Assembly (NCBI GenBank): GCA_947179485.1
Contig: OX359250.1
Span: forward strand, 36,300,783-36,364,782
Length of the DNA: 64,000 nt
Source: Allacma fusca
Taxonomy: Eukaryota; Arthropoda; Collembola; Symphypleona; Sminthuridae
Reading direction: 5' to 3'
The notes below the pieces were generated by a model that saw only the letters and a program-made list of their open reading frames with translations, did not search any database and had not been told where the DNA came from. A program made the position numbers and the translations under genes. Positions 1 to 64,000 of this stretch are shown here, piece by piece (position 1 is the first letter of the stretch; each line of letters starts with the position of its first letter).

Positions 1-359
1 GGCTTACAAAGGCATGAAATTACGCGGCTCTCCACAGCCTTCCAGGAGTTGAGGGAATGACATTAGATTTCCTGACTAGCGGAAATTGTTGGAACATGTT
101 TCAAAGGAATCAAAGTGACAGCATAGCTTTCCGGCCATCGCACTCTCATGTAACTAATGTCTATCATAATAAGACTTGCACGCTCTCATGCTGTACATAA
201 TCTGCCACATAAGGATTTTCACTTGTTGGAACCCTTCAACACTCATTAGTTCCTCCCGGATCATGTCTCTTTCCCCCTGCAAAAAAATCCCACTGCTTTT
301 CTTAATGTGCAAATCTTACTTCTTTCTCCGGAACCTCAAACACACACCTCAACAGTAAT
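1..359. other. Unique non-coding sequence, left edge
   Basis: No gene recognised. The first 57 bases form an open frame (GLQRHEITRLSTAFQELRE then stop at 58-60) that could be the tail of something beginning outside the window, but 19 codons without a stop is expected often by chance. The rest is ordinary AT-rich sequence becoming pyrimidine-rich towards the following array. Confidence 0.5.
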
Positions 360-429
360 TTTTTCCCCTGAAATTTTTCACTTCTTGAGACTGATATACA
401 TCCCTCTAAGTCCCTCAGATATATATTTA

Positions 430-1020
430 AACTCTTTTAATTTTTTCCAAACGCAAAGAATATTTCCCCAATTTCTCAGAATTTGTTTTCAATTTCACAA
501 AATTTTAACAAATTGCTCAATATTTCTCTAACGTTTCCCTGATTTCCCCCATTTTCTCAAATTCGTTTTCCAATTTCTCCTAATTTTTTACCATATCTTA
601 GATTTTTTCACCATTTCTTAGAATTTTTTGCGATTTCTCAAATTTGTGCTTCAATTTCACAAAATTGTTTTCCAATGTCTCAAAAATGTTCCCAAATTAT
701 CAAAAAATTTCTTAATTTCTCAAATTTGTTTTCGATTTTCTCAAAAATTGTCCCAATTTCTCAAAAATTGTCCCAATTTCTCAAAAATTGTCCCAATTTC
801 TCAAAAATTGTCCTAATTTCTCAAAAATTGTCCCAATTTCTCAAAAATTGCCCCAATTTCTCAAAACTTGTCCCAATTTCTCAAAAATTTCCCCAATGTT
901 TCAAAAATTTCCCTAATTTCTCACAATTTTCCCCAATGTTTCAAAAATTTCCCGAATTCCTTAAAAATTTCTCCCCCAATTTCTCAAAAAATTTTCCCAA
1001 TGTTTTCCAATTGCTAAGAT
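430..1020. repeat. 20-bp tandem repeat array, core 741-900
   Basis: Tandem units of TCAAAAATTGTCCCAATTTC. From 741 to about 900 eight units follow each other in an exact 20-bp register with only single-base changes. Upstream (about 430-740) and downstream (about 900-1020) the units decay gradually, keeping the CCCAATTTCTCAAAA theme but with indels. The pyrimidine-rich strand is the plus strand. Open frames across it (for example 675-1160) read a repeated SQKLSQFLKNCPNF-like peptide with a 20-residue period (three units). That follows from the repeat and is not evidence of a gene. Confidence 0.93.
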
Positions 1021-2400
1021 TTTTCCAAATCAAAGTGAATTTATTCCATGTACTAAAATATTTGTGTAATGTCTTAAAGATAAAGGGGGATTCAAATATT
1101 TTGTTACACACTGTACAATGCGGAAAAATGCGAAGGAATGGAAAAGTTTTTTGTCCGTAATTAATTCTAAACCTGACCGACCTCAAGCCCAAGCTCTGGC
1201 AATGTCTTATATGTATCTCTGGAGTAGCTCCAAGATGTATCTACTTTTCAAGACCAAATTCCTACTCTTGTTACAGTGTATTCCAACTGTAAGAGACCTT
1301 AAAATAAGAATATTTATTCTCCAGTAATTACATAACACACGAGCACTAATTTAAAATGTGTTGTAAAAGAGTAAAAAAATTTAGACATTGTAAGAATAAA
1401 ATTTTGCCACTACAATACTTGGAAACATCCCGGATTATAACGATATAATTTTTTCTTGAGAAGGAAGGATTCTTGACTGAAATTTCAGGTCTTTCAGGGG
1501 TGTTCATATAAAGAGATTGTACGGTGTAATTTCCATCAGACGCGTATAGAGATGCTGGAGAAGGTAAGGAGGAAAGATAGATGGAAGGAATTGGCAACTC
1601 AGCTACTCTTCCCGTTCCAGCTGTTGTTGTTGGATTGTGAAGGAAGCAATGAGACACATAAGAGGATTTACTTGCATTTGACAAGGATACAAAAAAGACA
1701 ATTCATGCCGTTGTTGTTTCTTGTTCTCGTTTCTTTGATCACATTTCATCCCTGGGGAAGCGTTTCTGAGAGTACCCGATCCCTCTCTCTCTCTCCCTTT
1801 CTGTATGCAGGAGAGAGTCAGACAAGAAAAAAACACAGGTCCCAGTAGCTTACACGTAATATATGTTACCATGTTTTCTTACGCATTCAGAAACCCACTA
1901 TTGAGCCCTATATATCCCTGTAGCCCAGTGTGGGAAGGAAATCAAGAGGGGATCTTATATGCTCTCACGAATCCATAGCTACATCTCCAAGCTACAGCAT
2001 TTTCTCCCTAACTTTAGCGAATACGCCAGCAAAACTCTATGTGTGGGATTGGGAGAAGATGGATTTATTCCTTGGGTTTCAATCTCACCGGCCTGGAGCA
2101 TTCTGTGTATGTAGAGAGTATTTTAGCGTATTATCTTTTAAAGGTTTCTCCCATTTTGCATCACCACCTGGACATTTTCTAAATTAGAGGCAACTCTCGA
2201 GATGATAAATATTCCACTTGAGCTCCTTTCACGCGCTTTCAGTCTACACCGCATTAAATATTACTCGAGGTGAGAAAGTCAGGGGAAAGTTTACTAAAGT
2301 TGAAAACACCGCAAAAATTACAGTTCCAAGGAGTAACCACGAGTCTCGTGGGGACGGATGGTGAATCAAGGAACTTACAATTACAACAATGGGGAAAAAT
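1021..2400. other. Unique non-coding sequence
   Basis: No gene recognised. Contains a short (CT)n run at about 1783-1798 followed by CCC. Overlapping short open frames on both strands show no motif and no coding-like composition. Confidence 0.5.
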
Positions 2401-2510
2401 CGGGAGAGCAAGTAAAAGCAACTGGAAGTTACTCAGAGGAATCTGAAAGAACAAATGTGTATGAAAATTATATGTATAACTTTGTAAAAGTTTGCGAGAA
2501 AGCAACTGTA

Positions 2511-2712
2511 ATTAACAGAAAGCAAGTGAAAGCAAGAGAAAGCAAGTGAAAGTAAGAGAAAGGAAGTCAAAGCAAGAGAGAGTAAGTAAAAGTAAAAGAA
2601 AGCGAGTGAAAGTAAGAGAAAGCAAGTGAAAGTAAGAGAAAGCATGTGAAAGTAAGAGAAAGCAAGAGAAAGCATGTGAAAGTAAGAGAAAGCAAATGAA
2701 AGTAAAAGAAAG
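2511..2712. repeat. 10-bp phased GAAAGYAAG array
   Basis: About 20 consecutive decamers (AGCAAGTGAA / AGTAAGAGAA variants) run without a single indel, so a GAAAG core recurs exactly every 10 bases. Alternation of the T-type (AAGTGAA) and A-type (AAGAGAA) units gives a weak 20-bp dimer. A looser shoulder of related sequence begins near 2400. Open frames on the minus strand read F/L/S repeats and are not genes. Confidence 0.95.
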
Positions 2713-4276
2713 GTAAGAGATTTGCAAATATAAGAGATTTTAAGAATATTCGGATAATTTTCGGGCTACCGCTGTGATAATTGTTTCCTTCTTGAAAGTA
2801 CATGTCATTACAAGAGTTAAATTTTATTCCATTTCTAGCGTTTCCCTTAAAGAAAGTACACTGCTAATCTTTCTGGTAATGACAAATAACTCCAGTCACA
2901 GGGATTCTGCATTTACCATTAATTGAGCAACTACATAGCAAAATTACATGGAAATGTTTTCTTAAAGTAAATTGCATTTGCTATGTTTGTAGTCAAGGCA
3001 CAGGGAGAAAGCTGTGCTGCTTCCAAGGGGTCTTGTACATCAAGAGTACAAAATAATTGGAAGAGAAACGCCAGCGTTAGAACGTATTCCTATCGGAGCA
3101 GATATATGGAACACAAAGCAAGTGAAAGGGAGTAGAAATGGAATGAGAAAAATTCGAGGAGGAAGGAGTTAAAAGAAGAGAAAGAAAGAGGGAAAGATGT
3201 AAGATATAGGAGTGGAGGAGGGGATAATAATAAAAAAGAATAATGAAAAATGGCTCGCTTAATACAAGGGAATAGGTTGCGGGGAAATCCTCACTTGGCC
3301 TCCCGAGCAACAATACTATGGGGAAGTGAGGAAGTGGAAGGAGAAGGTTTGGATTTGGTTTAGACAAGGAGCAAAATAGCAATCGGAATGGAAATTAGTT
3401 GTGAGCTTTCTCCTCCCTCACCTGCTCCTTCCCATTCCTCTTGTTGTGTTGAGACTCATTACTGCTTTCACTTTGACTTTCACTCCTCTCATGCTTGACT
3501 GGATTTCCTATGGAAATTATTCCTTCCCGACTTTCTTCTCCCGCTTCCATCCCAATCTAGGTTGGGTCTAATCCCTCCATCCTTCTCATCACATTTCATC
3601 CCGACCTTTTTTTAACCGTACTAATCCAATGTACATTAATCTACGGAGTCAGTTCCAACTTTTCTCAAGGAATTTTCCCTTCAAAAAAATTCTACAACAT
3701 TAATTTCTCTACAAATACAATCTTCAATACAATTTTATTCTGCCGAGTCTTTCAGACAAATTGCTTCTAAGACATTTTGTCTATTGGCATTTTTTCTCGT
3801 ATTTATATCATATTTGAAAACACCGCATGTATGGAGAGGAGAATTCAGGATTGTCAGTTCTATTTTTCAAAAAGAGAACTGACAATTTTATTTCATTTTT
3901 TGCTTTTATCTTAAACTCAAGTATGAAACCTTTTTATTCCCCTGTTTTTAGGGTTTTTACAAAGAAAATTATTAGGGACATGTATGTTGGGAAAATCCAT
4001 GCTACGTCTCCAAATTTATATATGTGCAAGTCGTATTTAAAGCCAATGCCCACACACCCCATTTCAAAACATCCATGCGGAGAAAGGAATGGCTTCATTT
4101 TATCCTCGAACAAATTACACTAATTAAACTTGTAGAGTGAAAGGGGTGAAAGTATTTCCTTTGAAAGAGTGGATTTTTTCTTTGAAAACACCCGCCCAAA
4201 ATGCCAGGACTTGACTGAAGCCCTTTTTTCTACATTTACACGTGTGTATTTTAATATGGGGCGCAACAAATATTTA
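2713..4276. other. Unique non-coding sequence with purine-rich patch
   Basis: No gene recognised. About 3110-3260 is strongly purine-rich on the plus strand and 3400-3560 pyrimidine-rich. Contains the hairpin at 3847-3889, listed separately. Confidence 0.5.
3847..3889. other. Perfect 12-bp inverted repeat (hairpin)
   Basis: Arms ATTGTCAGTTCT (3850-3861) and AGAACTGACAAT (3875-3886) are exact reverse complements around a 13-base spacer, which itself has TTTTT and AAAAA that could pair. The outer side extends by two G-T pairs and one A-T pair. It is shorter than a typical animal microRNA precursor and has no oligo-T terminator pattern attached. It may be a foldback remnant. Confidence 0.75.
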
Positions 4277-8040: not shown

Positions 8041-9530
8041 AAGCTCCTGACGCATGACTTGAACTTGCAGTGAGTTCTGCATAGAGAAAGTGTAGTACGA
8101 GGACCAGAGAAAGCCAACTGGAAGCGGAACTATAGGAATGTTAATCGGGTTCGTATTTCCTTTGCAAGGAATCACGCCGCAGTAGTGGAAGTGCGGGAGC
8201 CGATGGGAGAAGAAAAATTCAAATAAAAAGCAATGACTGTTCCCCGAAGAAAGTCAAGGGATAAAGGAACCGCATAAAGCAATGTAAACTATGATTATGT
8301 TACAGGCCGCATTCACTTGTCCCATTCCCTTTACTAATTTATCCCAGTATTATGTATCACAATAGGCATTATTAACCGAGACCCTGTCCTCCTATAGAGG
8401 ACCTTACTAAGTCTGACTCCTCAAGAAGCAGCAGCGCTTACACTTCTCAATGTGAGAGCTTCCTTGATTCCATGGAAGGGAGGAGAAAGTACAATGTAAT
8501 TGCATATATATACGCATGGTGTGAAAAGGCAACAAGGACGAAACCCTGGAGAGGGCCATTTCCTTTACAACTGTATAAATAACAGTAGCGATAAAAGTCG
8601 CAAATGGTCTCCTAGCAAAATGTCTTAATAAAACAAGATGAACTCACATTCAGACACACACACACACACACACAAATACATATCTCCACCTATCACTCCG
8701 TCCTTCCAATAACATTCTCATATTATCAGACCAATTGTCAACCCTTAATGAAACCTCGGGACTCCAGACGCTTTTCTTCAATACAGGATTCCCCAAAATA
8801 CTTCCAGCTCCCCCCTACAAAATTCTTTAAAAAAATCCAAGAATTTTATCATATTTGTTTCCAACTCTATACAGATCCACATTCCTTTTTTTTTAAAACG
8901 GTTTCCACAATTTCAAAGAAAAAATCTGGGATTTGTGTATTAAAAAATTTCGAAGAATGTAATTTTCTTAAAATATACTCAAATTTTTTTGGCACCCTGT
9001 AGAGAAAACATCAACGGCACATACACAACTCGAGACACTTCCGGAGGATGCACACAGCTCTTTCCCTATCTTTGATTTCAAATATCGTCCAAATGCAGAG
9101 GCTCCACATAAACTCTGGGACATTTCCCTCTGAACTTACTTTCCCCCATAATTCTGTCTAAAATCCAAAGTGCATAGAAAATAGCAAATATACGTCCATA
9201 CGCTCTGGGAAAAATGTCCTTCTTGTCATGTCTGTATACGGCCACCATTAAAATACATACTTGTGTATGCCCTGGTCCTGGGTAGCAAAAATTCTCGTTC
9301 CTTTTTTAACAGGCAGGGATTCGAATGCTTACTAAGAATTTTCCCTTCCTGGGGAAAGGTCGCCTTGGAGGAGTCTTTGATGAGAGAGGGGAAAACCGTA
9401 AAAACTAGTGATGAAAGCAGAAATGATGTGCACAAGTAATTTGAATTAATGTAATTAGGCACATTCGAGACCAGGAACGCACCGTCATCAAAAGGTCAAC
9501 TGCAGCTAAAGCAGAATTGGGAACACATTT
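8041..9530. other. Unique non-coding sequence
   Basis: No gene recognised. Single family-A motifs at 8084-8091 and 8483-8490. A/T-homopolymer-rich around 8820-9000. Confidence 0.5.
8653..8674. repeat. (CA)n microsatellite
   Basis: About ten uninterrupted CA dinucleotides after GA. Confidence 0.9.
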
Positions 9531-10559: not shown

Positions 10560-11120
10560 GAACTCAGAAATGTTGGCCCGAAATTCGAATTCTTTTACCC
10601 CGATTTTAGAATTATTAACCCACTATTCCCAATTATTGTTGAAACAAAATTTTCAATTTTTAACCTGGAATTCATAATTGATGATCCAAAATACACAACA
10701 GAAACAATTCTGCATTCACAATTTTTGACACGTAATTCAGAATTATTGACACAAATTGAGAACTTATTGACCCGAAATTCCCAATTAATTTTTGGCCTTA
10801 AATTCACAATTGTTGACCCGGAATTCACAATTTTTGAACCGGAATTCACAATTTTTGACCCGGAATTCACAATTTTTGAACCGGAATTCACAATTTTTGA
10901 GCCGGAATTCACAATTTTTGACCCGGAATTCAGAATTGTTGACACAAAGTGCGAAGTTATCGACCTGAAATTCCCAATTAATTTTGGCCTTAACTTCACA
11001 ATTGTTGACCCGGAATTCATAACTGGTGACTCGGAATTCGAAATTGTTAACCTAAAATTCACAACTGCTGACCCAGAATTCAGAATTATCACCCGGTATT
11101 CCCAAATAATTGGCAGCTCG
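10560..11120. repeat. 21-bp tandem repeat array, core 10800-10946
   Basis: The unit is GAATTCACAAT followed by TTTTGACCCG. GAATTC falls at 10821, 10842, 10863, 10884, 10905 and 10926, exactly 21 bases apart. Units on either side are progressively diverged (AATTC/AATTG plus TTGACC themes). Because 21 is a multiple of three, the array stays open on both strands (10725-11204 plus, EFTIFDP period of seven residues; 10595-11128 minus, IVNSGSK period). I treat neither as a gene, because both have exactly the repeat's period and have no non-repeat domain. Confidence 0.94.
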
Positions 11121-13310: not shown

Positions 13311-14085
13311 ATGCAAGCCAGTGAAAGTTGGGGAAATTAGAGACAGTTGGTGAAAGCAGAAAAGCTAGAGAAAGCAGAGAAAGTTGGTGAAAGCAGAAAA
13401 GCTGGAGAAAGCAGAGAAAGTTTGTGAAAGCTGGAGAAAATAGAGAAAGTGGATGAAAGCTGAAAAATGGAGAACGTTGGCGAAGGTGGAATAATCAGAA
13501 AATGAGAACGCTGGAGATATCAGAGAAACAGGGTAAAAGAGAAAGTATAATCAAGTTGTTAAAAACTCAGATCAAGAAAGTAGAACAAAAGCGAACAAAA
13601 TCAAGAAAAAATTTAATAAGTTTCAAAATGAGAAAAGAGGAGAAATTCGAAGAAAAAAGCGTAAGATTTAATAGAAGGAAAATAAATTTGGAGAAAATTA
13701 ATATATGATAAAACACGTGAAATTTGAGAAACAAGATCTGTGAACTGGACAAAGGGAAAGAAAGCAGTAAAATTGAAAAAGTAAAATAAAACAGCACGGG
13801 AAATAAATATTTTAAAAGTGTAACAGAAAGCGAGTGGAGTTTTGACAAAACAACTTGTAATGGTTCAAGAAAACCTGGTAGGAGAGAAAGTTGAAGAATG
13901 AAGACAACGGTAAAAACCCCAAAGACGGTAAATTACAGGGAAGCTCAAGGAAAGGAAAATAGTGTGAGTAAAATTAAGGAAAATAAATAAAATCTCAAAA
14001 TGCAAAAGTCCCCAGATGTACACAAATAATCGTGAAAAAGAATAATAAATTCACAAATAAGAGAAAGCAAACCCGAAAAAGCCAA
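13311..14085. repeat. GAAAGY purine block with 9-10-bp repeats
   Basis: From about 13320 to 13500 units such as GAAAGCAGA, GAAAGTTGGT and AAAGCTGGA repeat at 9-10-base spacing, including GAGAAAGC and GAGAAAGT several times. From 13500 to 14085 the sequence remains strongly purine-rich on the plus strand with isolated GAGAAAGT/C (about 13541, 13881, 14061) but no clear period. A lysine-rich plus-strand frame and a leucine/serine-rich minus-strand frame here simply reflect the purine bias. Confidence 0.85.
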
Positions 14086-24719: not shown

Positions 24720-25440
24720 GAGAAAACATTTAAGATTCCAAATTGGAGAAAGTTAAACCTGAAAATAAAGTTAAAATTCGAGAGCTTAAAAAATGAAGTA
24801 GCGAAATTTCAGATATTGTGAAAATTGTAGAAAGTAAGAATTGTAGAAAGTAAAATTTGAAGAAAATAAAAATTGTAGAAAGTAAAAATTGAAGTAAAAA
24901 TTGAAGTGTCAAAATTTGCGAAAGGAAACGTTAAAATATCAAAGTTGGAGAAAGTAAAAATTTAAGTGTATTAATTGAAGAAAGTAAAAATTTAAATGCA
25001 AAAATTTTGGTGTAAAAATTTGAGAAAGTAAAAATTTAAGTGTCGGAATTAGCGAAAGTAAACATTAAATGTAAAAATTCAAGTGTCAAAATTGGAGAAA
25101 GTAAAAATTTAAGTGTATTAATTGAAGAAAGTAAAAATTTAAATGTAAAAATGTAGGTGTAAAAATTTTGAGAAAGTAAAAATTTAAGCGTCAGAATTGG
25201 CGAAAGTAAACATTAAATGTAAAAATTGGAGAAAGTAAAAATTTAAGTGTTAAAATTGGAGAAAGTAAGAATTTAAGTGTAAAAATTGGAGAACGTAAAA
25301 ATTTGAGTGTAAAAATTTAGGTGTAAAAATTTGTGAAAGTAAACATTTAAAAGTAAAAATGGGAGAAAGCAGCAAAATGGAAGAAACTTGTAGTTGGAAA
25401 AAGTAACAGAATTGGGAAGATGTGAAAGTTTTTGGAATTG
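24720..25440. repeat. ~30-bp GAGAAAGTAAAAATTTAAGTGT array
   Basis: The unit is GAAAGTAAAAATTTAAGTGT followed by TAAAATTGGA. The register is 30 bases at 25231-25290 and degenerate elsewhere, with units shortened to 15-25 bases. Each complete unit embeds the family-A motif GGAGAAAGT. A GAAAGT-to-GAACGT change is visible at about 25291. The left part (24720-24920) and right part (25330-25440) are diverged shoulders. Confidence 0.88.
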
Positions 25441-39845: not shown

Positions 39846-41070
39846 CTTCCAGTCCTCTACTTTCACCGTACTTTCACCGTACTTTTACAAAAGCCATATG
39901 CTCATACTCTTCATTTTATAGAATCATGTAGATACTTACATTCTGCATTTAGAATGGTTTATACTTTCACTGTGGTTTCACTGTACTTTCTCCATGAATT
40001 GTAGATAAGCATGTAGGCTCACAAGGCTTTCTCAAGGATTTGTATGTATTCCTGCTGTTTTCACTCTCCATTTACTATACTCCTTGGACTGACATTTCCA
40101 CAAGCCTTTCACTGCAATACTACTACGCTTTCCCTGTACTTTCACGTTCAATATTTTCGAGTTGTGTACATTTACTATACTTTTGCTGTACCATGGAGTG
40201 GCGTTGTTGTAAATTTTCGTTGCTTTTCTATGCTCTAGAAACATTTTTTGTTATTTTCATCATGATTTGCGTATAGTTCTTTTTACTTTCACTGTACTTT
40301 CGCAGCTGTGGATACATTTTAATCTGCAATTTCCGCCTTTATTTGCGATAGTCATTAATTTTGGATATATTTATTTCAGTCACACATTTTCATGTAGGTT
40401 TCGTTGGGTCTCAGTGTACTTTTACTGTACTTTTAATATATTGCCAATGTATTTCACTGTGCTTTTCTTATCATTTTACTTTTATAAGGATCTGTATGCA
40501 GTCATCTTTTTTATGATTTTATTGAATATTTCTTTTGATTTTCATACTGGTCAGCACCTACACCATTGGGATTTTTCACGACTCATCTTGAATATTTTTG
40601 TGAACTATCACTATACTTTCAGTATACTTCTATAATGCTTTCTCCATACCATGTTTTTTCTGTACTTTCACTATACTTTCACTTTACTTTCACTATGCTT
40701 TCACTATGTTTTCCCTATACTTTCACTATATTTTCCCTGTGCTTTCCCTATACTTTCACTATTCTTTCCCGTTACTTTCACTATGATTTCCCTATGCTTT
40801 CACTATATTTTCTCTATGCTGTCACTATGCTTTCCCTATACTTTCGCTTTGCTTTTCCTGTACTTTCACTATGATTTCCCTATACTTTCGCTATGCTTTC
40901 CCTATACTCTCGCTATGCTTTCCTCATTCATTCACTATGCTTTCGCTATTCTTTCACTACGCATTCCCTATACTTTACAAATAAGCATATGCTTTCACTA
41001 CGCATTCCCTATACTTTACAAATATGCATATGCTTTCACTATACATTTATCACGTCTAAAGTATACAATC
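39846..41070. repeat. 11-bp phased CTTTCACTATG array, core 40665-40983
   Basis: From 40665 an 11-mer CTTTCMCTATR recurs in perfect register (for example 40687, 40698, 40709, 40720, 40753, 40775, 40797, 40863, 40885, 40951) for about 28 units without an indel. CTTTCACTATG and CTTTCCCTATA types tend to alternate, giving a 22-bp dimer. A broad left shoulder (39846-40660) carries CTTTCACTGTA/CTTTCACCGTA pairs spaced by unrelated sequence. The minus strand has GAAAG every 11 bases. Overlapping open frames read SLCFPYTF-type repeats and are not genes. Confidence 0.95.
40951..41032. repeat. Tandem 41-bp duplication
   Basis: 40951-40991 and 40992-41032 are identical except for one base (ATAAG versus ATATG). 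The duplicated unit contains the last three phased 11-mers plus an unrelated ACAAATAAGCATATG tail. Confidence 0.9.
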
Positions 41071-48490: not shown

Positions 48491-49045
48491 AAGAGTGACT
48501 GGTTGGAGATAGAGAGAGAGAGAGTTTAGAAACGAGAAATTCTGGCGAAGCACAAAATCTGGCACATGAGAAGTTCAGGGAAAGCACAAATTTGTGAAAA
48601 AGAGAAAGTCTGGGGAAGCACAACTTCATGAAAACCAGAATGTCTGAGGAAGCACAAATTCTGGAAAAATGGGTTAGAAATGCACAATTTCTGGAGAAAA
48701 AGAATTTGGAAACGAATTTTGAAGAGAGTCCAGGAAAAGCACGATTCCCAGAAAACGAGAAAGCCTGGGAAAGTAATAATTCTTGAAGAGTAAACTGGGA
48801 ACATACAAATGTAGAAAAAGTTTAAATTGACATATCAAGAAATCTTTTTAAAAAAAGAAACCCCGTGCAATGATAACGACTAGGTCAGGAGAAAATATGC
48901 AAAGGCGATAACTATGAACAAATTTGGGAAATTCGGGAAAGAAAACAGGACAGAAGAAACTTGCCTAATAGAGACTGTATGAAAGAAACAGTTCTACAAA
49001 AATAGAGTTTCTAAGACACAAGACTGTGCTGGAGAAAGTAGAAAA
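48491..49045. repeat. ~33-34-bp GAAAG/GAAGCACAA array
   Basis: GGAAGCACAA-type elements lie at about 48547, 48580, 48614, 48648 and 48681, spaced 32-34 bases. Each is preceded by a GAGAAAGTCTGG-like half and followed by TTCTGGAAAA. Later units (48720-48830) are irregular. A (GA)n run at 48510-48524 sits at the left boundary. 48840-49045 is purine-rich but unpatterned. Confidence 0.82.
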
Positions 49046-50320: not shown

Positions 50321-53300
50321 TATGTATACGTAATCCCTCTTTCACTAAGTTTTTTTTACTCTTTATTCATAATTTCATCATAAGTATACTTTTCGCATAC
50401 TCCTATTTTTTACGAAGCATTTCAAATGCTTCGACTTTGCTTTCTACATGGCGAAAATGCTTGGAATATATTTTCCTCAGCCTTTCTCCATATTTCCTAC
50501 AAGACCCAGGAACATTGCGGGCAGCATGCTTTTGCTGTACTTTCTGTATGTTTCCTCCAATTTTCTCCCCCTCTTTTGTGAATGTACATAAAATGACGAG
50601 AGCTGACTTGACGGGGTCGCCCGTTTTAATACGACTAACACAAGTCAGTGGAAAGTGTTTCCAGAATACGGTTACACCCAGCTTTATCCCAAGTTATTAT
50701 GCTCGTTTGCAGCTGGAGAACGAGCACAATCTAAAAGGAGCTTCCTCTCCAGATCTTCCCTCCGCCGGCTTTATCCACCGAATATGAGCTGATGTATGTA
50801 AAGCAGTGTATGCGTTCACCTCGATGACTTATAGAGGAGTAGGGATGGAGATGAGGGAAGGAGATTGAGGGAAAGTGCTGTTTTAAAAAACGAGAACTCA
50901 CAAATTGTCGGGCATGTGCTCACAAGTTTAAGTAAAAAAAGTAGAAGGAAGTGAGGAAGATTTCCTCATTGCCTTCCCGCCTTGCTCCGTGTATTGCCTT
51001 GGTCTTGTGCCTATCTCTTGAAATTAAATAAACTGTTCCTCGCTGACTTCCCTATTTATTTAGAGCAACAGCTCATCATAATATTCCTTATTTTATCATC
51101 TTGGGAGTCTGGCTCAGGAAGGCTTTCACCGGCATAATTTTTTGTCCCTGTTCTCATCCCTCATCCTTTGAGCCATTTTTAACTATTGTTTCTTCATAAG
51201 AGCTACTTTCTCCCAGGCTTTATCATTACCATAATTTCCATACATTTCAGTCCCTCCTTCCTTTCCTGGCCGAGTAGACAATGCATTGGAATACGCAACA
51301 CTCACAATCATATACATAGGTATTCTACCCACGTGCATTCAATTATCCGCAAATAATGATACAATTCATAGCACATACGAACGTACATACATACATATGT
51401 ACAGACACATGCAGAATTTATAAACGCTTAGATAGCCTAGCCTGAAAATACCTGGGATAAAATACAAGGCAGCACACTTTTCCACATTTCATTCCTGCAT
51501 TTAGTTCTCACTACATGACTGGATATATAATAACACAAGTGCTTTTAGTAAATTTCAAATACAGGGAAGTAGACGCGAATAATGTAAACACGGAAGTGGA
51601 GTATGTACTGACTGTGTTCTCCCATGGGCTCAGAACAGTACACATGAACATCCCTTTAAGCAAGCGTACGCACAGACACACATCCGTTTAAATAAACCAG
51701 ATAAGAGGATATGTGGAGATTTCAAAAGTAGGGATGGAAGCGTGTGTCAGAACGTGATGCAATGCATGTATGTAAATATGTTACAAGCTGAGGTTGAAAC
51801 AGTCGGACATTAAAACCCATGTTAGGAGTAACATGTTAAAGTTAAGCAGCCATAAATAGGACAAATATAGAATCCTAGGTCTATTTCCACACATTATATC
51901 ATATACGGGAATCAACGAACCCACAGTGGAGTCACTATATTGTCAAACGTAAATGGATCAAATATGGGTTGAAACCTTGAGCACACACAGAGTATTGACA
52001 CAAGTTAAAACTTGTGTGCTCTGTGAAACCCTTGAAGATATGGAAATCCATTTTAAGCGAGATAGGATCTTGCTTAGAGCGCAAATGCTAATTATTTTTT
52101 TAATTAGAAATCAGAGATGTCCTCTTCCCTGAAACCGCCTCCCTTTGATTTAAAATTCTATCAGAGAAGAAAATTGTGCACAAGTTGTTTCTTCAAAGGA
52201 AAATGTTTATTATTAGGAGAAAATATTCCAGGGAAAAAACGGGATAACGGATTAAATAATGTAAGAGATTTTATTGACAGAGTGGAAAACCAAGAGGAAG
52301 AGGGGAAATTTTGGGGGAAAAGTCCTGGAAATCTTAGGACAGCGGATTTTACATGAAAGCTACCACAAGTTCTGAGCGATACAATTTTAACTGAAAAAGT
52401 TGCAATGCTACTTTTTACTCAGTCTCTCTCATCCAACATGTTCGGTGTGTATGGATCTCCACTCCTTTTTGCAACTTCCGTCTTTTTTTCGTCAATTTTC
52501 TCCACTCCTATGGACCCATACGTTGGGAATCGTCAGGGACGTTTATGTATTCATAGAACTTTCCTAGCTTTGAAACTTTTGTCAAACTTTGCTATTTTTG
52601 AAGGGAACACTCCAGTCCGCAGTTAGGGGATACGATGCTGCTGGGTTGCGGAAATCTTGCCTTTTTAATAACTCATCTCTTATTCCCTCTTCCTGTGCTC
52701 ACTTTCTCTCTCTCCCCTGCTAAATATCTATTTTCACCACGTGGTTCCCCTCTATTAATTTATAAGATTCTTTACTTTTTGTACTTTCTCTTTTTTAAGT
52801 CTTTCCTACTTAATCTATTTTTTTAAATATTCCTATTTTTCCACTTTCCACCTTTCTCAATAATAATTCAATTTACGTACTCTCATTTTATCTCGGAACT
52901 TTCCCATCCCTGCTATTTTAAACTTTTTGTCTGTGCGATTTTACCAGTTGCTCGTCTCTCAATAGCATTTCTCTTGCTATTCCTCTCCTGAACTTTCTCC
53001 ACTGTTTTTGTTTCGTTCAAATTCCTTATACTTGCTATTTTTTGTTTTTGAAACTTTTTTAATTTTTTTTGTTATTTCCGTATGTGAATGATGCTTAAAG
53101 CGCTACCTGGGGAAAGATTACTTTCATTTGCTTTCTCCGATTTCGGAAATTGGAAATGGGTCTCTTCTATTATTTTGATACATTAATGATGGGTGTGTGT
53201 GTTTGTGTGTGCTATCTCTGCGTAGTTTTACGGTTTGTTTGCTTATAATGAATTCATTGATTGGCGGCTCTCTGTTAGATGGAATACTTTTGCTGCCTTT

Positions 53301-53955
53301 CCCTCGCTTACTTTTCAGCTTATTTGTCTGTAGGGGTGGATTTATGGCGGATGATTATTTAAGTTTCTTCATTGAGAAAGTCAGTGAAAGCTGAGGAGAA
53401 AGTCGGGTTGCCAGAATTAGGTCAAAGTAATACTATATCATAATGTAAGGGCTGGGGTGGGCTCGAACGCTAATATATTACTTTTTGTAGAGAAAATCAT
53501 AGGGTTGAATGTAAGGGACCATAATTCATAGGGGAAATAATAATTCATGGGAAATAAGGAGCATTTTAATTGAAGTCTGGTGAGAAGAAATCCGGGCTGG
53601 GAAATAAATGGTCATATAATAATGACGGGAGGGAGGAAGGGAACTGCATTAGGCTAGTCCCTGGAATGGTTTATAGCCAAGATTAATTCATTAGGAAATC
53701 CATAAAATTGATAAAGGGATTTGCAAGAGCAGCAAAGATAGAAATCAATTTTTTGTGCAGTCATGTATAAGAAATCGCTTCCTTTACGGACTCTCCCTCA
53801 AGGAGAAAGTAGGTTGGGAGTTGGGAGGGAGATCTACCTTAAATATAGTAAATCCTCTACTTGAGAGTATTCACCCACATGAACTTACTGGCTGAGTAAA
53901 ATATCTCCATAGGAATTCATTGGTCTCATGACTTAATTATTTTTCAATTCCATCA
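50321..53955. other. Unique non-coding sequence
   Basis: No gene recognised over 3.6 kb. TACATATGTAC at about 51397. Pyrimidine-rich 52630-53060. Scattered GAGAAAGT or complement near 51210, 52700, 52990, 53130, 53380, 53397 and 53800. Confidence 0.5.
51966..52034. other. Nested inverted repeats
   Basis: ACACAAGTT (51998-52006) and AACTTGTGT (52009-52017) are perfect inverted 9-mers two bases apart. A second pair, GAGCACAC (51979-51986) and GTGTGCTC (52014-52021), overlaps it, and GGGTT near 51967 can pair with AACCC near 52029. Two alternative hairpins are therefore possible. Confidence 0.75.
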
Positions 53956-53960
53956 TCAGC

Positions 53961-53973
53961 CTCTCTCTCTCTC

Positions 53974-54004
<31 letters not shown>
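53961..54004. repeat. (CT)n microsatellite, interrupted
   Basis: CT dinucleotides with TT and CC interruptions, followed by ACTTTCTCTC (family-A complement). Confidence 0.92.
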
Positions 54005-54960
54005 TACTTTCTCTCGAGCTCCTTTTGTGTTGAAATCTGATGAGAGTGGGCTGACTGGGACGAAAAATCAGCTTAAAGCTGCCGTCATTTTTAATATATA
54101 TAGCTTTCAGACCTTCACCAAGACGTATGACACTTTCACAATAAAGTGCACCACACCGACCGAGCTCCACCGTTGTCATCGTCCCTGTCGACTCCGTGGA
54201 TTTATCCCCAACTTACTCTCTTCTTTCTTACACTCCTTTCTCTGGCACTTTCTCACTTCCTTGCTTTCCATTTCCCTTTCCATCTCAATTTTTCTTGCGT
54301 CTGCTCTCGCTTTTCCCTGTCCTTTGTCACTTTCTCTTCCCTTCTCCTCGACTTCCCCTTGCTCGGCTCTCCTGTTTTTTTCCGCTAGTGTCCTTTTACT
54401 TTCACTTGTATCTATTGCTCCTCCTTGCTCTCCAGCGCTTTCTCTTAATTTCATATTGCGTCCCAGTGTCTAATGAATTTTACCAGCTTTCTATCAACCA
54501 TCTTCCCCTGGACTTGAAATACGAATTCTATTCTCAGTTATTTAATTTCTCTGGGACTGTTTCGCATTTTTGCATTTTGTTTCTCGTTTCCTCAGCGTCA
54601 GTCCCTCTCATTCTTTCATCACAATTTGCCTATTTTCACTTTCCCTCTCTTGAGCTCGCCTTCTTGTCTGACATCCCAATGTTTAATTTATCTCTCTCAG
54701 ATCCAGTTTTTAATTTCGGACATTTCTACTCGAAAAATTTCCAGCAAGATTTCTCTGCTCTATCTTGATTCCTCGTATAATCTCTGGCTGTCGCTTTCTC
54801 CAGATCTTTTATTACTGGATTTTGCTATCGCATGTGGATCCTGCTTATATAAGATCCTTGCTGCTTTCTCCGGCTTTTATTAACATTTGATACCTCCTAA
54901 TTTGTCTTGGCTTTCTGCTTCTTCAATTGATTGCCCCCCTTACTCCAACTTAGCCTTTCT
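54005..54960. other. Pyrimidine-rich block
   Basis: About 1 kb dominated by C and T on the plus strand, with ACTTTCTC/GCTTTCTC motifs repeatedly. The frames 54027-54473 and 54196-54768 (148 and 190 codons) overlap, are L/F/S/P-rich and have no recognised domain. I regard them as products of the composition rather than genes. Confidence 0.6.
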
Positions 54961-55758
54961 CTCTCTCTCACCGTATGTGCATATTTATAAAAAGATTGTG
55001 TGAAGGAAAGTAGCTTTCTCTGAATTTGAATTGCTATCTCAGAAATTTTGGGTCTAAGGGAAAGAAGCTCGCTCTCTCAATTTAGCTTATTTAGTTCATC
55101 CCACCCCTTGTTTTCCTTCAAACTAAGGGAACTTTCTCCTCGGGAAAACTTCAATCCCCTAATTACGACGCACGTTAGGATTTCAAAGGGAAGAAATTAA
55201 ATTTATTTATGAAAGATCAATGGAGTCTTAGAAGTATGCGGACCATCCGCCCGCTTTATGATTTCCATATGTTGCGGGGAATAACAACTTGAGAATGTTT
55301 TATGTCCTTTGCTAAAAGCGGCTGCCTATAAAAAAAAATGAAAGTTGAGCATGGACCTTCTGTAGAATAGAAATCCCGGCTGGCTCTGTACTATTTGTAT
55401 TTAGATCTGCCCATGTAGAAATTCACGTGCGTAAGTGTGCACTTCTGGAGCAACAATGGGGATGGGAGATGCTCTTCAGCATGTAAATAAATGGACTTTC
55501 TCCCGAAGAGGATCCCATTCACAAACAATGGGACTGGAGTGTAAAAAAGGATAAAATCTCCCTGCCTTTATCTGTGCCATGTTGTAAACATGCAGTAAAT
55601 ATTATGCCCCTCTTGGTATATCAAATTGTAGTATAAAAATGGTATAAGCGTATTAATGGGGGAGTACCATGCGTTCGCACGATTAGTTACCACTAAAAAG
55701 CAAGACTCACTAAAGCCCCTTCCTTTTTTCTCCCGCACAGTCCTCTTATGTTACGCCG

Positions 55759-56278: not shown

Positions 56279-56279
<1 letters not shown>

Positions 56280-58806
56280 AACCACTTCAAATATCATGGA
56301 TTATTTCCAATATTTCTCGGGTATTTACTTTCTCTCCACATTTCATTCCTTGGAATAAGTAATGATTAGGAAAGTGCACCCCCTTTATCCCAGCCTCCGA
56401 TGACTGCTTTCTCCATGTGTTGCGAGTTGAGACAGTCTAGTCAAATTTTTCTCCGAGGATATTTTCCCCTCAAGTACTAATTGCCCTCTTTAAAAACTCA
56501 AGTTACTGTATGTAATAAAAATGCAGAGGTTTTTTATAGGTCTCAGCTCTCCCTGGAATGTCATTATGACGGGAATCTACATCATCTCTGGAAAAAAATA
56601 CAGCCTGGGGGTGTGGGAGTAAAAACAGCTTTAGTGCATAGTTGAGAGGAAGATACTCAGCAGAGATCAAATTTTTATGGACCTTTGTCTGTGAGGATTT
56701 TCCCTGGCTTCTGTTTATGCACTGGCCCTATTACATCTTTGGAAGCATATGTTTTATGTCTGGGAGCAATTCTGAATGAATCTGTAGATACTCGAAGAAA
56801 GTTCGTACGTAAACATACGTATGTACATAAGGACCCTTGTAGATACACAGACCCAAACGGAGTGACTTTAGCCTTCCCGGACTTAATAGGAGGATTGAAT
56901 TTAAGTCAACACATTTATCGCCCAATCCCAATTCACGTCCAGTCACTTACTCCGGTCTCAATGTTTATTTTTTTTGAGGAGAAAGTACAACTCACGTGAG
57001 ACATTCCCCCATCTCATTGGCTCTTCACCCACCCTGCCGTAAGAGATACAGTGTAAATTTTTCCCATCCGTGCAACTCAGACATACTGAACGGACATACT
57101 GAAGGGAAAGTCATTGGGAGGAACTCTTTAAATTTGCTCCTCCAAGGGCACGTATGTGCAAAAGTGTGTTAAGAGAAGATGTCACTCGCATTCCATTCCC
57201 ACTATATTTTTACAATGGCCCCCCAACTGACATATTTTCTTCTACATGGTCTGACACATTTTCCTTGGAATTGCATTCCGAGTCAAGGAGAGGGAAAAAT
57301 AACAGAAACTTTTGGCTCCGCCAAAATCCTCCGTCCTTCCCTTCCCGTCGATGACGTCCCACACAAAAGTGGGACTGATGGGGATTCAATTTTACAATTT
57401 CACGTCAATACCCTTTGAGTCAAGATTCTCTGAGAACCTGCCCGAACCTTCAATAAGATATGATTGAATGTATTTTCTATTGTACAACTTCCCCTATGCA
57501 GAGTACGAAAAGAAAATCTGAAGTCGTTCTGAATTGTAAATTTTTTAAAATCCGATGACAATAATTATTACAACTTTTAAAAATTGGGAAGGAATAAAAT
57601 TATTATGTAAAACTTTTTTCCCAGGGTAATAATACCCTTGAAGTTATCTTTCTGCTAGCGAATGGTACTTCTACAGGAATAATTAATTTTTAAATAATGT
57701 TTAAAGTACGAATAACTCTAGCATTAATTCGTATGCTCTAACTTCCTGCGGAGTTTAAAATGTTCCATTAAAACAGGTCCAATTTTAGAATGTTTCCACA
57801 GACAGGATTTTTTCCCCATTTAATTATACTGTATGTATAATGGGCAGACAGCTTTCTAATTTTCCTTCTTTTATTTTAAAGGGAAAGTCTCTGGGCCTTT
57901 TTTCCTAGCTGAGCATTCAAATGAGCCCCATTGAGTATTACATACATAAATGCTCCGAGGAATCCTCCATTCTCAAAGGGAAGAGTGAAAGGAAAACTTT
58001 CTCCCGTATTTACACACCTCAAGTCATTCCTTTTAGAGGGACATTGAAAATTTACATGGGGAATGTGTATCATTCCAGATCCTAGTAGAATTTCAAAGGG
58101 GATCAAAAGCAACAAGGAGTTCCCCTACAGTCCAGGTCTTTTATCCTGGAACCAATGGAGAAAGTCGTAATAAATTGACTCCACTGCTCCACTAGAAAAA
58201 CAAATTTGAAAAAACAAATTTGTAAAGGGAAATAACCTTACAACTTGCTTTGTTTATCCCCTTTAAAAATACAGTTGGGCGTCTTTGCACTTACAGGATC
58301 AAAGGCTACATTTCGAGAGGTAAAGAGGGAACACTTTTCCCTGAAATAATTGCAAATTTTGTTGTTTTTGCAACATTGGGGTCTGTTTTTAAAAGGAGGG
58401 CCCTACTAACTATTTCCTTGCGAGAGTCCTTCCTCCAACGGCATCCTGGACGAAGATGACTAGAGATGGCAATTTTTTCCGGGAATTTTCGAATAAGAGA
58501 AAATTGATTGATAAAATGAGTTGAACGTCCCACTCACACAGGGCACATGTATAGATATTCTTAAGTGGAAAGAGATTGGATGAGGTACGATTCTTGGGAA
58601 TAGGGAAGAAAAATTCCATTGGATTTTATATTAAAAATTCTTGAGACTCTGAGTAACTTGAACCTGGGAAAATATGTATAGGAATAATAGGGAGGCTGGG
58701 GCCATTGGTACAGAGTGCTTTCTCCTTTCACTTTCCCCGTCATTATTTTTATTATGGAGTAATTACGCTGGATTCCCTGGCTAAAGGAAAGACAGTGTAG
58801 TCAAAG

Positions 58807-59564: not shown

Positions 59565-59790
59565 CTTTCGATCACTTTCGATTACTTTGGATCTTCTGCT
59601 AATTCTGATACTTTTTCGTACTTTCTGCTTTTTTTGATACTTCTTCGTACTTTCTGCTTTTTTGACACTTTTTGATATTTTCAGCTTTTTTTAATACTTT
59701 TTGGTGCTTTCTTCCTTTTTTAGATACTTTTTGGTATTTTCTACTTTTTTTGATACTTTTTGGTATCTTCTGTGTTTTTGGTATTTTTCG
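59565..59790. repeat. ~29-bp GATACTTTTT array
   Basis: GATACTTTTTCGTACTTTCT plus GCTTTTTTT repeats about seven times with 28-30-base spacing and many substitutions (CGTACTTTC versus GGTATTTTC). The minus strand carries GAAAGTA or GAAAATA in each unit and reads KYQKVSKKAE-type lysine-rich frames (59599-59820), which are repeat artefacts. A decayed right shoulder runs to about 59870. Confidence 0.88.
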
Positions 59791-59879
59791 AATTTTTAAT
59801 AGATTTGGTCTTTTTTCCATATTAAGTGCTCTTTGATACTTTTTGGAGTTTCGCTTACTCTTTTGTGAGGTTATGGACG

Positions 59880-61430: not shown

Positions 61431-61660
61431 TCTCACTTGGGTGAAAATGGAGAAAGTTAATTTTGGAGAAAGTGGAGAAAGTTATTCTCGGAGAAAGTTC
61501 GTGTCAGAGAAAGTGGAGAAAGCCAACTTGAGTGAAATTGTTGGAAGTTAACTTGAGTGGAACTATATTTCGTGGAAAGCGAGGGCATGTAGCAATACTA
61601 AAATTGAAAGTTGAGATTAGTGAAAGCGTAGAAACTCGTCAGTTGTGAAAGCAGAGCTAG
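61431..61660. repeat. GAGAAAGT cluster
   Basis: Six GAGAAAGT/GAGAAAGC copies within about 80 bases (61448-61523) at 12-28-base spacing, separated by TTAATTTTG, TTATTCTCG and TTCGTGTCA. GTGAAAGC variants continue to 61650. Confidence 0.88.
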
Positions 61661-63886
61661 GAGCCAAAGTGATTCAAATCCGCTGAACAGACAAGATGAA
61701 AAATGTATTTCCAGATTGAATGCCACCAAGTCAAATAGGATCCAGAGTAGATTAAGGAGGAACTGACGTTTGTTGATTAGTAATGCAATTTTCACCAGTT
61801 TAATTAATAAATGTCATGCACTTGAGAGAAGGTGAAAAGAAGAGATACAGAAGGAAGGCGCCGGAAGGAATGCGCCAACTTTGATACTTATACCGAGCGG
61901 TTTAATGCCCTTGTTCCAGGTTTATTTCCACCAGATTTAGTTCTTCCCTAAAAAAAGAATCCTCTTTTTCTGTCAAATCTTCCTCTCGAGTTTGGTTAAA
62001 TTCCAAAAGCCGGGTAAAAACCACTTTCTGTTTTCCCCAAAATTTCCTTTTCCCGAAAAAAAAAGAAGTAACGGTAAAAAAATTGCAGCCAACTAATAAA
62101 ATATTGTTGGGAGGAAATTGCCTCCTTTACACACTAGATTCGTCAAGCCCCACAGAAACAGTAGAAATTCATGCTGTTGGAAGTTTCCTTGTTGAGACAG
62201 ACGAGATGTTGTGTCCTCTCCGAGTGGATTGCGAGAGTGAACTGAGAAAAGCCGGGCCAAGATTTCTAAACTTGAGGGTGGGAAAAGCAAGGAGAGAGTG
62301 TAAGAGAAAGTCGTTGGAAAAGCGTGTGTAGATCCGCTTTTGCTGTTGAAATCGATCGGAGACCCAAGGGTTGCTTCTACATCACTATTCCTGTTAAAGG
62401 CATGCGCTTCCCTTCACTCACACACACACACAGACACACACAAACTTTGTGTTGGAAGCTAGGCCTCAAAATCTTACATATAACTATATAATTGCACACA
62501 CTCCAAGTGCCCTCGTATCATACGTCAGAGGGAAGTCTGAGAGTATGTACCATTTGGATGTATATAAATACATGTATAATGGGAAGGAACAGGGTTCTCT
62601 CTCTCTATATATATAGGAAAAACCTCATGCCTCCTTTCTCCTCATGCTTTCCCCCGGTGAGTATATTCTTGCCATTTCATCTCCGCGATCTCTCTTTGTA
62701 GTTTGCTTCCTCGCTGGTAGTTTCCCTCGTAGTATTATCCTCTCTTGACATGGACTATTTTCGCAAAAAATTGCAACTTTTGTCTTGGCAATTGCCACCA
62801 GAAGCAATCACATTCTATCGCATTGAGGAATTGTGGGAAATAATCTTGCATAATTGCTGCAACCACATTCCTTTCCCTTTCATTCTCACTCCATGCTCTC
62901 TGTGGATCCCCTCTCTCCTCTCTCCTTTCTCTGCACTTTCACCAGACTTTCACCATTCAACATTTCCTAGTCGGCCCAAGATGATCATTTAATAGTCCAG
63001 TACTTTCCTCATTCCTCCTCCTCTTACACACAATTATTACAAGTTACAAGCTAGACGGAGCATACGCCGGGGTCATAAGTATGTCCTCCTCTTTCACTCC
63101 TCCTATGCCGGTCCTAACGAGCCTCATCCTCCTCGTAATGCAAACAGTTTTCGGATAATTTCATACTCTCATCATTACTATTCTCCCTTTGAAGGGGGCC
63201 GGTCTCCGCTGTCCTACTATCCCCTGCTCTCTTTCACTCTATTTTTTGCTCCCACTTTCTCTCGCTTTCCCCGACTTTCTCCGTCCCGTCCATTTCCACC
63301 CGTAACTACACCATTATAAATAGCAAGTGACGGACGGCTGTTATATAACTAAAGTAAGTTACTCAGAAATTCTGTTTTCTCCTCAACGTTGCTCGCCAGC
63401 AGACAGGCATGACATGCTCCCTGCATCTACTCCAACTACATGCTTCCCATATTTAACCATCAACCTTGCCATACTCAAAGAACATGGTTTTCGTGTACGG
63501 GACAAGCTAAAGAACCAAAAGTGTCTGGAGAGAGCTGATGAAAGCAATGAGCTAGTAGTTCCAGGAAGAAGTCAAATAAATGCCTGCACGGCTCTTGATG
63601 CACCAACATTGAATCTATGACCACGCTAATGCCCTACTCTAACGCTCACTTTCTCCATGTGATTTCAGTGGTTTTTCCCCCCGATACATCGAGCTATCTT
63701 CGTAAAAATCCTTGGAAGAGGTGCAAAATTTAACTTTAGTACTCGCCCTTTCTAGTAAAGCTCTCTCTAGTAAAGCTACCTCTAGTATCTACAGGAATAA
63801 GGAGAAAATGTAAGATCATTATTTTCAGTGGGATATTACATGGATCTCAAAAGCACGGAGAAAGTATTGTTGTCAAATGTCTTTAA
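61661..63886. other. Unique non-coding sequence
   Basis: No gene recognised. Frames at 62083-62331 (82 codons) and 63327-63620 (97 codons) have a more balanced residue composition than most here, but no family is recognisable. CTCTAGTAAAGCT is repeated about three times at 63748-63790. Confidence 0.45.
62417..62442. repeat. (CA)n microsatellite, one GA interruption
   Basis: CA run with one GA interruption. Confidence 0.9.
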
Positions 63887-64000
63887 TATCGAGGGTTTGC
63901 TGTGTCTGCCTCCAGCATCGTAAGAGGCAACTCACTTGAGGAAATTATGGACTACCTGGAAATGTTTGCTTATGAATGCGTAATTATTTTCTATGTGGCT
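63887..64000 (+). other. Open frame running off the right edge
   Basis: After a TAA at 63884-63886, 38 codons remain open to the window end, reading ...RGNSLEEIMDYLEMFAYECV... . A TCTGCCTCCAG preceding part of it could act as a splice acceptor. It resembles protein more than most frames here, but 38 stop-free codons are common by chance and I recognise no family. Confidence 0.12.

What the first reader, a model, noticed from the sequence alone, without database searches (positions are those of the whole stretch)
1..64000. A dispersed GGAGAAAGT motif saturates the window on both strands
Scanning by eye I count about 100 copies of GAGAAAGT or GAGAAAGC (or their complements), most often as GGAGAAAGT. 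At roughly 38% GC each 8-mer should appear only a few times in 64 kb counting both strands. Many copies are solitary in otherwise unique sequence (for example 8483, 12734, 22159, 28909, 33172, 34170, 44120, 47922, 49032, 56980 and 58160), so array expansion alone does not explain them. Dispersed short motifs that recruit chromosome-scale machinery are known (Drosophila GA-rich MSL recognition elements on the X; C. elegans pairing-centre motifs bound by zinc-finger proteins). That this motif is such a site is inference.
Basis: partly seen in the sequence, partly recalled or inferred. Interest (0 to 1): 0.8.

Follow-up and report, generated by a model that had tools for sequence, protein, structure and literature searches.

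The report
Dense motif domains on springtail X
A stretch of what appears to be a springtail's X chromosome carries a sharply defined nine-letter DNA word dozens of times more often than neighbouring DNA, as if it were a landing platform for a protein, in an animal known for throwing away X chromosomes.

Summary
The window has 155 GAGAAAGY; 122 lie outside tandem arrays, and 70 of those are over 100 bp from any other copy. The word is sharp, [G/A]G[A>T>g]GAAAG[T>C], and GAGAAAGT ranks first of its 280 letter permutations. Scaffold sizes point to the springtail Allacma fusca and to contig C9 as its X2 chromosome (inference). A. fusca males lose one X1 and X2 early in development. The enrichment is regional: dense at C9 25.0 and 36.29-36.41 Mb, background at 36.20 and 36.50 Mb. 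The first 10.9 Mb of C1 (chromosome 1) show only background, at most 4 GGAGAAAGT per 64 kb against 59 here. No gene was found in the parts of the window tested. Most likely these are binding platforms for a sequence-specific, perhaps Blimp-1-like, protein that marks X-chromosome territory. X-limitation, the protein and the purpose are unproven: the genome server stopped answering before X1 and the other autosomes could be counted. Main rival: neutral minisatellite turnover, nearly as likely.

The parts
1..64000 (.). Interior of a motif-dense domain on contig C9 (X2 by length), G000:C9:36300783-36364782. Also dense at 36.2928-36.3008 (L031), 36.3648-36.3748 (L021) and 36.40-36.41 Mb (L022); background at 36.20-36.21 (L020) and 36.50-36.51 (L023). 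The domain is thus about 117 to 290 kb if continuous; 36.3748-36.4000 was not read.
   Evidence: GAGAAAGY per 10 kb: window 24.2, L021 30, L022 28, L020 1, L023 0; L031 16 in 8 kb.
2496..2720 (+). Array of about 11 units of 20 bp built of two motifs (GAGAAAGC, GTGAAAGT)
   Evidence: core mismatches 10/135 versus 16/89 at other positions
13319..13462 (+). Degenerate array of about 19-bp units, consensus CAGAGAAAGCTGGAGAAAG
24821..25369 (+). Array with nested units of about 30, 74 and 134 bp, AAAATTGGAGAAAGTAAAAATTTAAGTG type
   Evidence: 24892-25369 scored with the 134-bp unit: core mismatches 1/67 versus 32/395 elsewhere
26935..28387 (+). Co-oriented run: 14 of 14 GAGAAAGY copies on the plus strand, in A+G-rich, mostly non-array sequence
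40663..41041 (-). Array of 22-bp units read on the minus strand as TAGGGAAAGCATAGTGAAAGTA
   Evidence: 40663-40976: core mismatches 11/172 versus 27/142
48530..48669 (+). Array of 34-bp units with AAAAGAGAAAGTCTGGGG; the one array of seven whose motif core is more diverged than the rest (5/24 versus 13/114)
51205..55502 (-). Predominantly minus-oriented run: 14 of 17 GAGAAAGY copies
61450..61523 (+). Cluster of six GAGAAAGY spaced 9 or 16 bp
8482..8490 (+). Example of a solitary GGAGAAAGT, next GAGAAAGY 376 bp away
33171..33179 (+). Example of a solitary GGAGAAAGT, next GAGAAAGY 998 bp away
34169..34177 (+). Example of a solitary GGAGAAAGT, next GAGAAAGY 921 bp away
56978..56986 (+). Example of a solitary GGAGAAAGT, next GAGAAAGY 573 bp away

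Best explanation
The window is the interior of a long domain, with no gene found so far, on the A. fusca X2 chromosome. It is studded with about one copy per 260 bp (248 in 64 kb, arrays included) of a sharply specified site, RG[A/T/g]GAAAGY. I propose that a sequence-specific DNA-binding protein, most likely a C2H2 zinc-finger protein of Blimp-1/PRDM1-like specificity, recognises the sites. Because many sites sit close together over 100 kb or more, it builds a cooperative chromatin platform there. Such platforms, repeated along the X chromosomes, would let the cell tell X from autosome. In this species the two processes needing that are the early embryonic loss of one X1 and X2 in males and any dosage compensation of the male's single X set. 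Shown here: the motif, its sharpness, its regional packing on C9, solitary copies without shared flanks, and its absence from the listed part of chromosome 1. Inferred: that C9 is X2 (scaffold length), that a protein binds, that the domains are X-limited, and what they are for.
For: (1) Sharpness. In 92.4 kb of TRF-masked dense sequence, RGAGAAAGY occurs 194 times (background scaled 4.4). Changes at the third position are common (T 68, G 39); single changes at the four GAAA positions total 84 where background predicts about 46; changes at the second-position G total 41 (15 expected) and at the eighth-position G 68 (24 expected). An old expansion decaying neutrally would lose all positions about alike. 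(2) Independence. Outside overlapping neighbours, flanks of the 70 solitary copies match one another only in GA or A-rich/T-rich simple sequence and one 16-bp word that is itself motif-like (29 rows, 9 of them neighbours). The window has no blastn match at E up to 1e-5 to any of 28 other loci, and among the dense or intermediate loci the only match is a shared 24-bp tandem unit of L022 and L031. Yet L015 at 25.0 Mb, about 11 Mb away, carries the same word at the same density. (3) Regional packing: see parts. (4) Chromosome contrast. The first 100 GGAGAAAGT on C1 span 10.87 Mb (9.2 per Mb; reversed-word control 8.0 per Mb genome-wide), at most 4 in any 64 kb. In 8 of 8 C1 loci fetched the seed copy is the only GAGAAAGY in 3 kb; in the window 56 such stretches average 8.6. 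C9 grid: 16 copies in 14 loci, 140 kb, 114 per Mb. (5) Arithmetic: were all autosomes like the start of C1, about 10,500 of 13,079 copies would fall on X1, X2 and unplaced sequence, about 100 per Mb, close to the C9 grid. (6) Identity: held genome 392,743,791 bp, C1 81,893,619, C9 48,059,808, against published 392,786,974 bp, longest scaffold 81,897,997, N90 48,066,046 and X2 48.07 Mb (PMC10427803). (7) The GAAAG core resembles Blimp-1 sites (PMC4497732, PMC6448932 passages).
Against: X1 and most autosomal sequence were never counted. The C9 grid rests largely on one locus: L015 supplies 11 of the 16 copies. Copies are co-oriented at short range (83% same strand under 250 bp, 72% at 250-500, 60% at 0.5-1 kb, 44-54% in the bins beyond 1 kb) and follow local purine skew (r = 0.67), as local sequence turnover would produce. 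Counts per 2 kb outside arrays are mildly clustered (variance/mean 1.8). Core positions inside seven arrays diverge less than other positions (29/501 versus 101/1015, p = 0.006; lower in 6 of 7 arrays), but not once compared base for base (p = 0.19). Lack of cross-locus matches is weak evidence: only 4 of all 406 locus pairs match at all. Nothing shows binding or expression. Dosage compensation is not mentioned in the main text of the A. fusca elimination paper. Elimination removes the X set of one parent only, so X-linked sites alone cannot explain it; an imprint would also be needed.
Confidence: 0.38

Rival explanations
1. Neutral turnover: an X region with high tandem-duplication activity repeatedly makes and erodes GA-rich minisatellites; the word is the commonest product, and solitary copies are remains of eroded arrays.
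For: Seven arrays (non-overlapping best TRF rows with at least 3 copies and period 9 or more, in five dense loci) carry the word in their unit. In the hand-masked window GNGAAAGY copies pair on the same strand at 9-13 bp (23 pairs). Orientation runs and purine skew correlate. About 10% of the window is tandem repeat, and many arrays have unrelated units, e.g. AACTTGAATTGA or TACTTGACTTCTATTTGACTCG, so turnover is general here. With arrays masked on both sides GA 8-mers are also about 5-fold up in dense loci.
Against: 70 of 155 copies are isolated with unrelated flanks. Decay products of the GAAA core are few. The same word dominates loci 11 Mb apart. Loci L019 and L020 are also array-rich (8 and 6 arrays of period 5 or more) but have only 0 and 1.1 GAGAAAGY per 10 kb.
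Confidence: 0.34
2. Clustered small-RNA loci: each motif is a promoter element of a tiny transcription unit (as in worm 21U-RNA clusters, recalled), or marks piRNA-source chromatin (as Kipferl's GRGGN does in flies).
For: Dispersed short motif in large domains; strand runs of about 1 kb; Kipferl shows that a zinc-finger protein with a short motif can define such domains (PMC9531945 passages).
Against: The worm-type word CTGTTTCA (recalled) is not enriched (2 in the window, 6 in 129.8 kb background). No second conserved element at fixed distance is seen from 30 bp before to 39 bp after GAGAAAGY. Transposon content of the domain, which would matter here, was not properly tested. No small-RNA data.
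Confidence: 0.12
3. Gene regulation: enhancer deserts of one or a few X-linked genes with many sites for one transcription factor.
For: The motif resembles a real transcription-factor site (Blimp-1). An F-box protein reading frame lies at C9 36.50 Mb, outside the domain (L023).
Against: 155 sites in 64 kb and recurrence 11 Mb away at equal density exceed ordinary enhancers (judgement); sites outside arrays are only mildly clustered (spacing CV 1.1, variance/mean 1.8).
Confidence: 0.1

Closest known systems
Drosophila MSL recognition elements (MRE / CLAMP sites)
   Same: Short purine-rich word linked to an X chromosome; many copies.
   Different: Core is GAGAAAG, not GA repeat. Fly MREs are on average 1 per 6 kb on X and only 1.8-fold enriched there (PMC3343056 passages); here GGAGAAAGT is about 60-fold over sparse C9 loci inside the domain, though the fly figure compares X with autosomes.
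C. elegans rex sites / MEX motif
   Same: X-linked clustered motif; clustering matters for recruitment (PMC8825453 passages).
   Different: Different word (recalled MEX: 0 window matches with up to 2 mismatches). Here the dense places are of order 100 kb.
Blimp-1/PRDM1 binding site
   Same: GAAAG[T/C] core (PMC4497732, PMC6448932 passages).
   Different: A is preferred at the third position and C nearly excluded, whereas the vertebrate consensus that I recall has T or C there. No domain-scale packing appears in the passages read.
Kipferl (GRGGN) piRNA-source domains, Drosophila
   Same: Zinc-finger protein and short motif specify chromatin domains (PMC9531945 passages).
   Different: Motif differs; fly source loci are transposon-rich (start of abstract).
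Sciara controlling element for X elimination
   Same: X-linked cis element in a species that eliminates the paternal X (PMC12385170 abstract).
   Different: A mapped locus with a 1.2 Mb repressive region; no dispersed sequence motif of it appears in the passages read.

Membership tests
MSL recognition element / CLAMP site | GA-repeat core | tested here: not met
   GAGAGAGA 12.8 versus 7.0 per 10 kb background, while GGAGAAAGT is 9.22 versus 0.15; with arrays masked on both sides GA 8-mers are about 5-fold up, GAGAAAGT about 18-fold
MSL recognition element / CLAMP site | X enrichment over autosomes | tested here: inconclusive
   C9 grid 114 per Mb versus C1 first 10.87 Mb 9.2 per Mb; other autosomes and X1 not counted
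C. elegans MEX / rex | 12-bp MEX word (letters recalled) | tested here: not met
   0 in window with up to 2 mismatches; 1 in 129.8 kb background
C. elegans pairing-centre motif (HIM-8 type) | HIM-8 12-mer (letters recalled) | tested here: not met
   0 in window with up to 2 mismatches; 6 in 129.8 kb background
Blimp-1/PRDM1 site | GAAAG[T/C] core in the recalled frame AG[T/C]GAAAG[T/C] | tested here: met
   54 in window, arrays included, versus 4 in 129.8 kb background
Blimp-1/PRDM1 site | T or C, not A, at the free base (recalled consensus) | tested here: not met
   RGNGAAAGY in masked dense loci: A 194, T 68, G 39, C 3
Blimp-1/PRDM1 site | bound by the protein | not testable with these tools
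   Needs pull-down or ChIP; the search for a PR-domain gene in the genome got no answer
Nematode-type piRNA promoter cluster | CTGTTTCA word (recalled) | tested here: not met
   2 in window, 6 in background
Tandem repeat / satellite family | copies explained by head-to-tail arrays | tested here: not met
   122 of 155 copies lie outside TRF arrays; eroded arrays below TRF's threshold are not excluded
Interspersed (transposon-borne) repeat | copies share flanking sequence | tested here: not met
   flanks of 70 solitary copies unrelated apart from simple sequence and one 16-bp motif-like word

The most novel reading that the evidence does not exclude
GGAGAAAGY domains are the X-marking elements of globular springtails: platforms found only on X1 and X2 that a zinc-finger protein reads to single out the X set for elimination in male embryos, or to compensate the X set that remains. 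To my knowledge they would be the first dispersed-sequence code for whole-chromosome elimination.
Probability: 0.2. Interest if true: 0.95.

Novelty: new variant of a known kind. Interest (0 to 1): 0.7.

Why it matters
How an embryo recognises the chromosomes it will throw away is poorly understood in animals with paternal genome elimination. A sharp, countable DNA word packed into domains on an X chromosome of such a species gives a handle: it can be counted per chromosome, compared with the globular springtail Dicyrtomina minuta, and used as bait for the protein. If X-limited, the contrast inside domains would be far stronger than the 1.8-fold enrichment of the fly element. Four paper searches (10 of 214,985, 15 of 17, 15 of 16 and 10 of 10 papers listed) showed no title on a sequence motif of springtail X chromosomes; no bioRxiv preprints are held, and beyond listings I saw only the papers named.

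Tried and rejected
Considered and rejected or weakened: (a) compositional accident, by permutation and Markov tests; (b) transposon or segmental spread, no shared flanks; (c) GA microsatellite, only 1.8-fold up, or about 5-fold with TRF arrays masked on both sides, still well below the motif; (d) coding region: none of 10 window reading frames gave a Pfam match at its cut-off (10 of 34 frames of at least 120 aa were sent; best E 0.23), no Rfam match at gathering score and no tRNA, and of four frames sent from dense loci L015, L021 and L022 none matched; introns and short exons are not excluded; (e) a fixed spacing or helical phasing of sites: no clear period over 273 pooled sites, apart from an excess at 9-13 bp; (f) within-array constraint, suggestive but not after base matching. 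A literature search for the word itself gave 1,375 papers, the 30 listed being on unrelated subjects by title. A broad motif/domain paper search gave leads only.

Background choice: the 13 sparse C9 loci were chosen after densities were seen. Left out were L013 (5 per 10 kb), L024 (9 per 10 kb, intermediate), L009 (half N), the dense L015, L021, L022 and L031, and the C1 loci. The background is therefore somewhat too low. The C9 grid figure of 114 per Mb uses 14 loci and includes L013, L015 and L024, but not L009, L020, L021, L022, L023 or L031. Masking differs: searches used a hand list of 24 stretches; searches used TRF rows. The comparison printed window matches over 40 bp only and lacked L031; one search repeated it without these limits.


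Full report
What was claimed and what is there. The window holds 155 (GAGAAAGT 75 on + and 29 on -, GAGAAAGC 30 and 21). Thirty-three touch tandem arrays found by TRF; 122 do not, and 70 of those have no other copy within 100 bp. With 24 array stretches masked, the word has the highest score of all 8-mers seen at least 8 times against an order-3 Markov model of the masked window (83 observed, 9.4 expected; an order-5 model expects 42.7), and it is first of the 280 permutations of its letters (83, mean 5.1). It is not simply GA repeat: GAGAGAGA is 12.8 versus 7.0 per 10 kb in sparse neighbouring loci, GGAGAAAGT 9.22 versus 0.15.

The motif is sharp. In 92.4 kb of TRF-masked dense sequence (window, L015, L021, L022, L031), RGAGAAAGY occurs 194 times, where sparse loci predict 4.4. 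A purine comes first, then G, then A or T (less G), then GAAAG, then T or C. Changes at the four GAAA positions number 84 in all, where background predicts about 46; changes at the second-position G number 41 (15 expected) and at the last G of GAAAG 68 (24 expected); T at the third position alone gives 68. A neutral family of decaying copies should lose every position about alike. The flanks from -30 to +39 add little beyond mild A richness. The shape, a short core with one free base, resembles Blimp-1/PRDM1 sites, whose GAAAG core is described in PMC4497732 and PMC6448932 (passages seen), but the preference for A at the free base differs from the consensus that I recall.

Where it is. The window is G000:C9:36300783-36364782 in a genome of 392,743,791 bp. 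A COX1 copy reads openly under the invertebrate mitochondrial code. Lengths differ by about 0.01%, so the held copy is probably the same assembly with altered gaps; I treat C9 = X2 and C1 = chromosome 1 as strong inference. In A. fusca one copy each of X1 and X2 is lost from male embryos, and sperm carry one parental haplotype only (PMC10427803 section 4; PMC9630974 passages).

The enrichment is regional. Of the 19 C9 loci fetched, three are dense: L015 at 25.0 Mb (26 GAGAAAGY), L021 at 36.365 Mb (30) and L022 at 36.40 Mb (28). L024 at 37.0 Mb is intermediate (9), L013 at 15.0 Mb has 5, and the other 14 have 0-3. L031 just left of the window has 16 in 8 kb. L020 (36.20 Mb) and L023 (36.50 Mb) are at background, so this domain is about 117 to 290 kb if unbroken. 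The window matches none of 28 other loci at E up to 1e-5; among dense and intermediate loci only L022 and L031 match, by a shared 24-bp tandem unit; but only 4 of all 406 locus pairs match at all, so this says little about transposons. I found no gene in the window: 10 of its 34 long reading frames were sent and have no Pfam match at cut-off, and there is no Rfam or tRNA match. An F-box reading frame lies outside at 36.50 Mb (L023).

Chromosome contrast. The search listed only the first 100 GGAGAAAGT, all on C1, covering 10.87 Mb: 9.2 per Mb, at most 4 in any 64 kb against 59 in the window; four pairs lie exactly 1,159 bp apart, and one fetched copy lies in a Pao-type retrotransposon (L004). 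In 8 of 8 C1 loci the seed is the only GAGAAAGY in 3 kb; in the window 56 comparable stretches average 8.6. The reversed-word control is 8.0 per Mb over the genome. On C9 a grid of 14 loci gives 16 copies in 140 kb, 114 per Mb, 11 of them from one locus. If all 282 Mb of autosomes were like the start of C1 they would hold about 2,600 of the 13,079 copies, leaving about 100 per Mb for X1 and X2. That agrees with X-limitation but does not prove it: from then on the genome server answered only one more request, so X1 and the rest of the autosomes are uncounted.

Turnover is also real. Copies are co-oriented at short range (83% below 250 bp, 60% at 0.5-1 kb, 44-54% beyond), and net orientation follows local purine skew with motif and arrays removed (r = 0.67). 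Seven arrays carry the motif in their unit. Core positions in them diverge less than others (29/501 versus 101/1015, p = 0.006; lower in 6 of 7 arrays), but the difference is not significant when A is compared with A and G with G (p = 0.13 and 0.26; both bases together 0.19). Local duplication therefore probably supplies copies, and the question is whether selection keeps them.

Verdict. The best reading is a domain-scale platform of sites for one DNA-binding protein on an X chromosome, with X recognition (for elimination or compensation) as its most attractive use; I give this 0.38. Neutral minisatellite turnover remains nearly as likely (0.34). The known systems it works like are X-recruitment motifs (fly MRE, worm MEX) and motif-defined chromatin domains (Kipferl). 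By sequence it is neither the fly nor the worm element; the Blimp-1 test is mixed. The Sciara controlling element shows that X elimination can depend on an X-linked cis locus (PMC12385170 abstract), but that is one mapped locus with repressive marks. Whole-assembly counting would settle the X question and should be done first.

Noticed in passing
G000:C12:58139742, C12:57617062, C5:4638854, C8:22971501 (loci L028-L030 hold three): Four near-complete COX1 copies on contigs other than C91, with only TGA stops inside the frame (11-13 each); they look like recent nuclear copies of mitochondrial DNA or assembly inclusions.
   Followed up: no
L009 (start of C9): Five 125-aa reading frames recur every 622 bp near the C9 end, suggesting a 622-bp satellite.
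   Followed up: no
window 29662-30058, 31944-32852, 35490-36212, 17812-18605, 10714-11105: Long minisatellites with units unrelated to the motif, e.g. AACCTTAACTTGAACCTA, AACTTGAATTGA, TACTTGACTTCTATTTGACTCG; L022 9373-9999 has TACTTGAACTTGACT-type units, so a TACTTGA-type word may be a second family of these domains.
   Followed up: partly
L004 (C1:753367-756375); C1 pairs at 2.38, 3.39, 6.60 and 8.21 Mb: Background GGAGAAAGT copies on chromosome 1 include one inside a Pao-type retrotransposon; four pairs recur at exactly 1,159 bp, so even the low chromosome 1 count is partly repeat-borne.
   Followed up: partly
L024 (C9:37000001-37010000): Intermediate motif density (9 GAGAAAGY, no arrays of period 5 or more): possible domain edge or older domain.
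   Followed up: no
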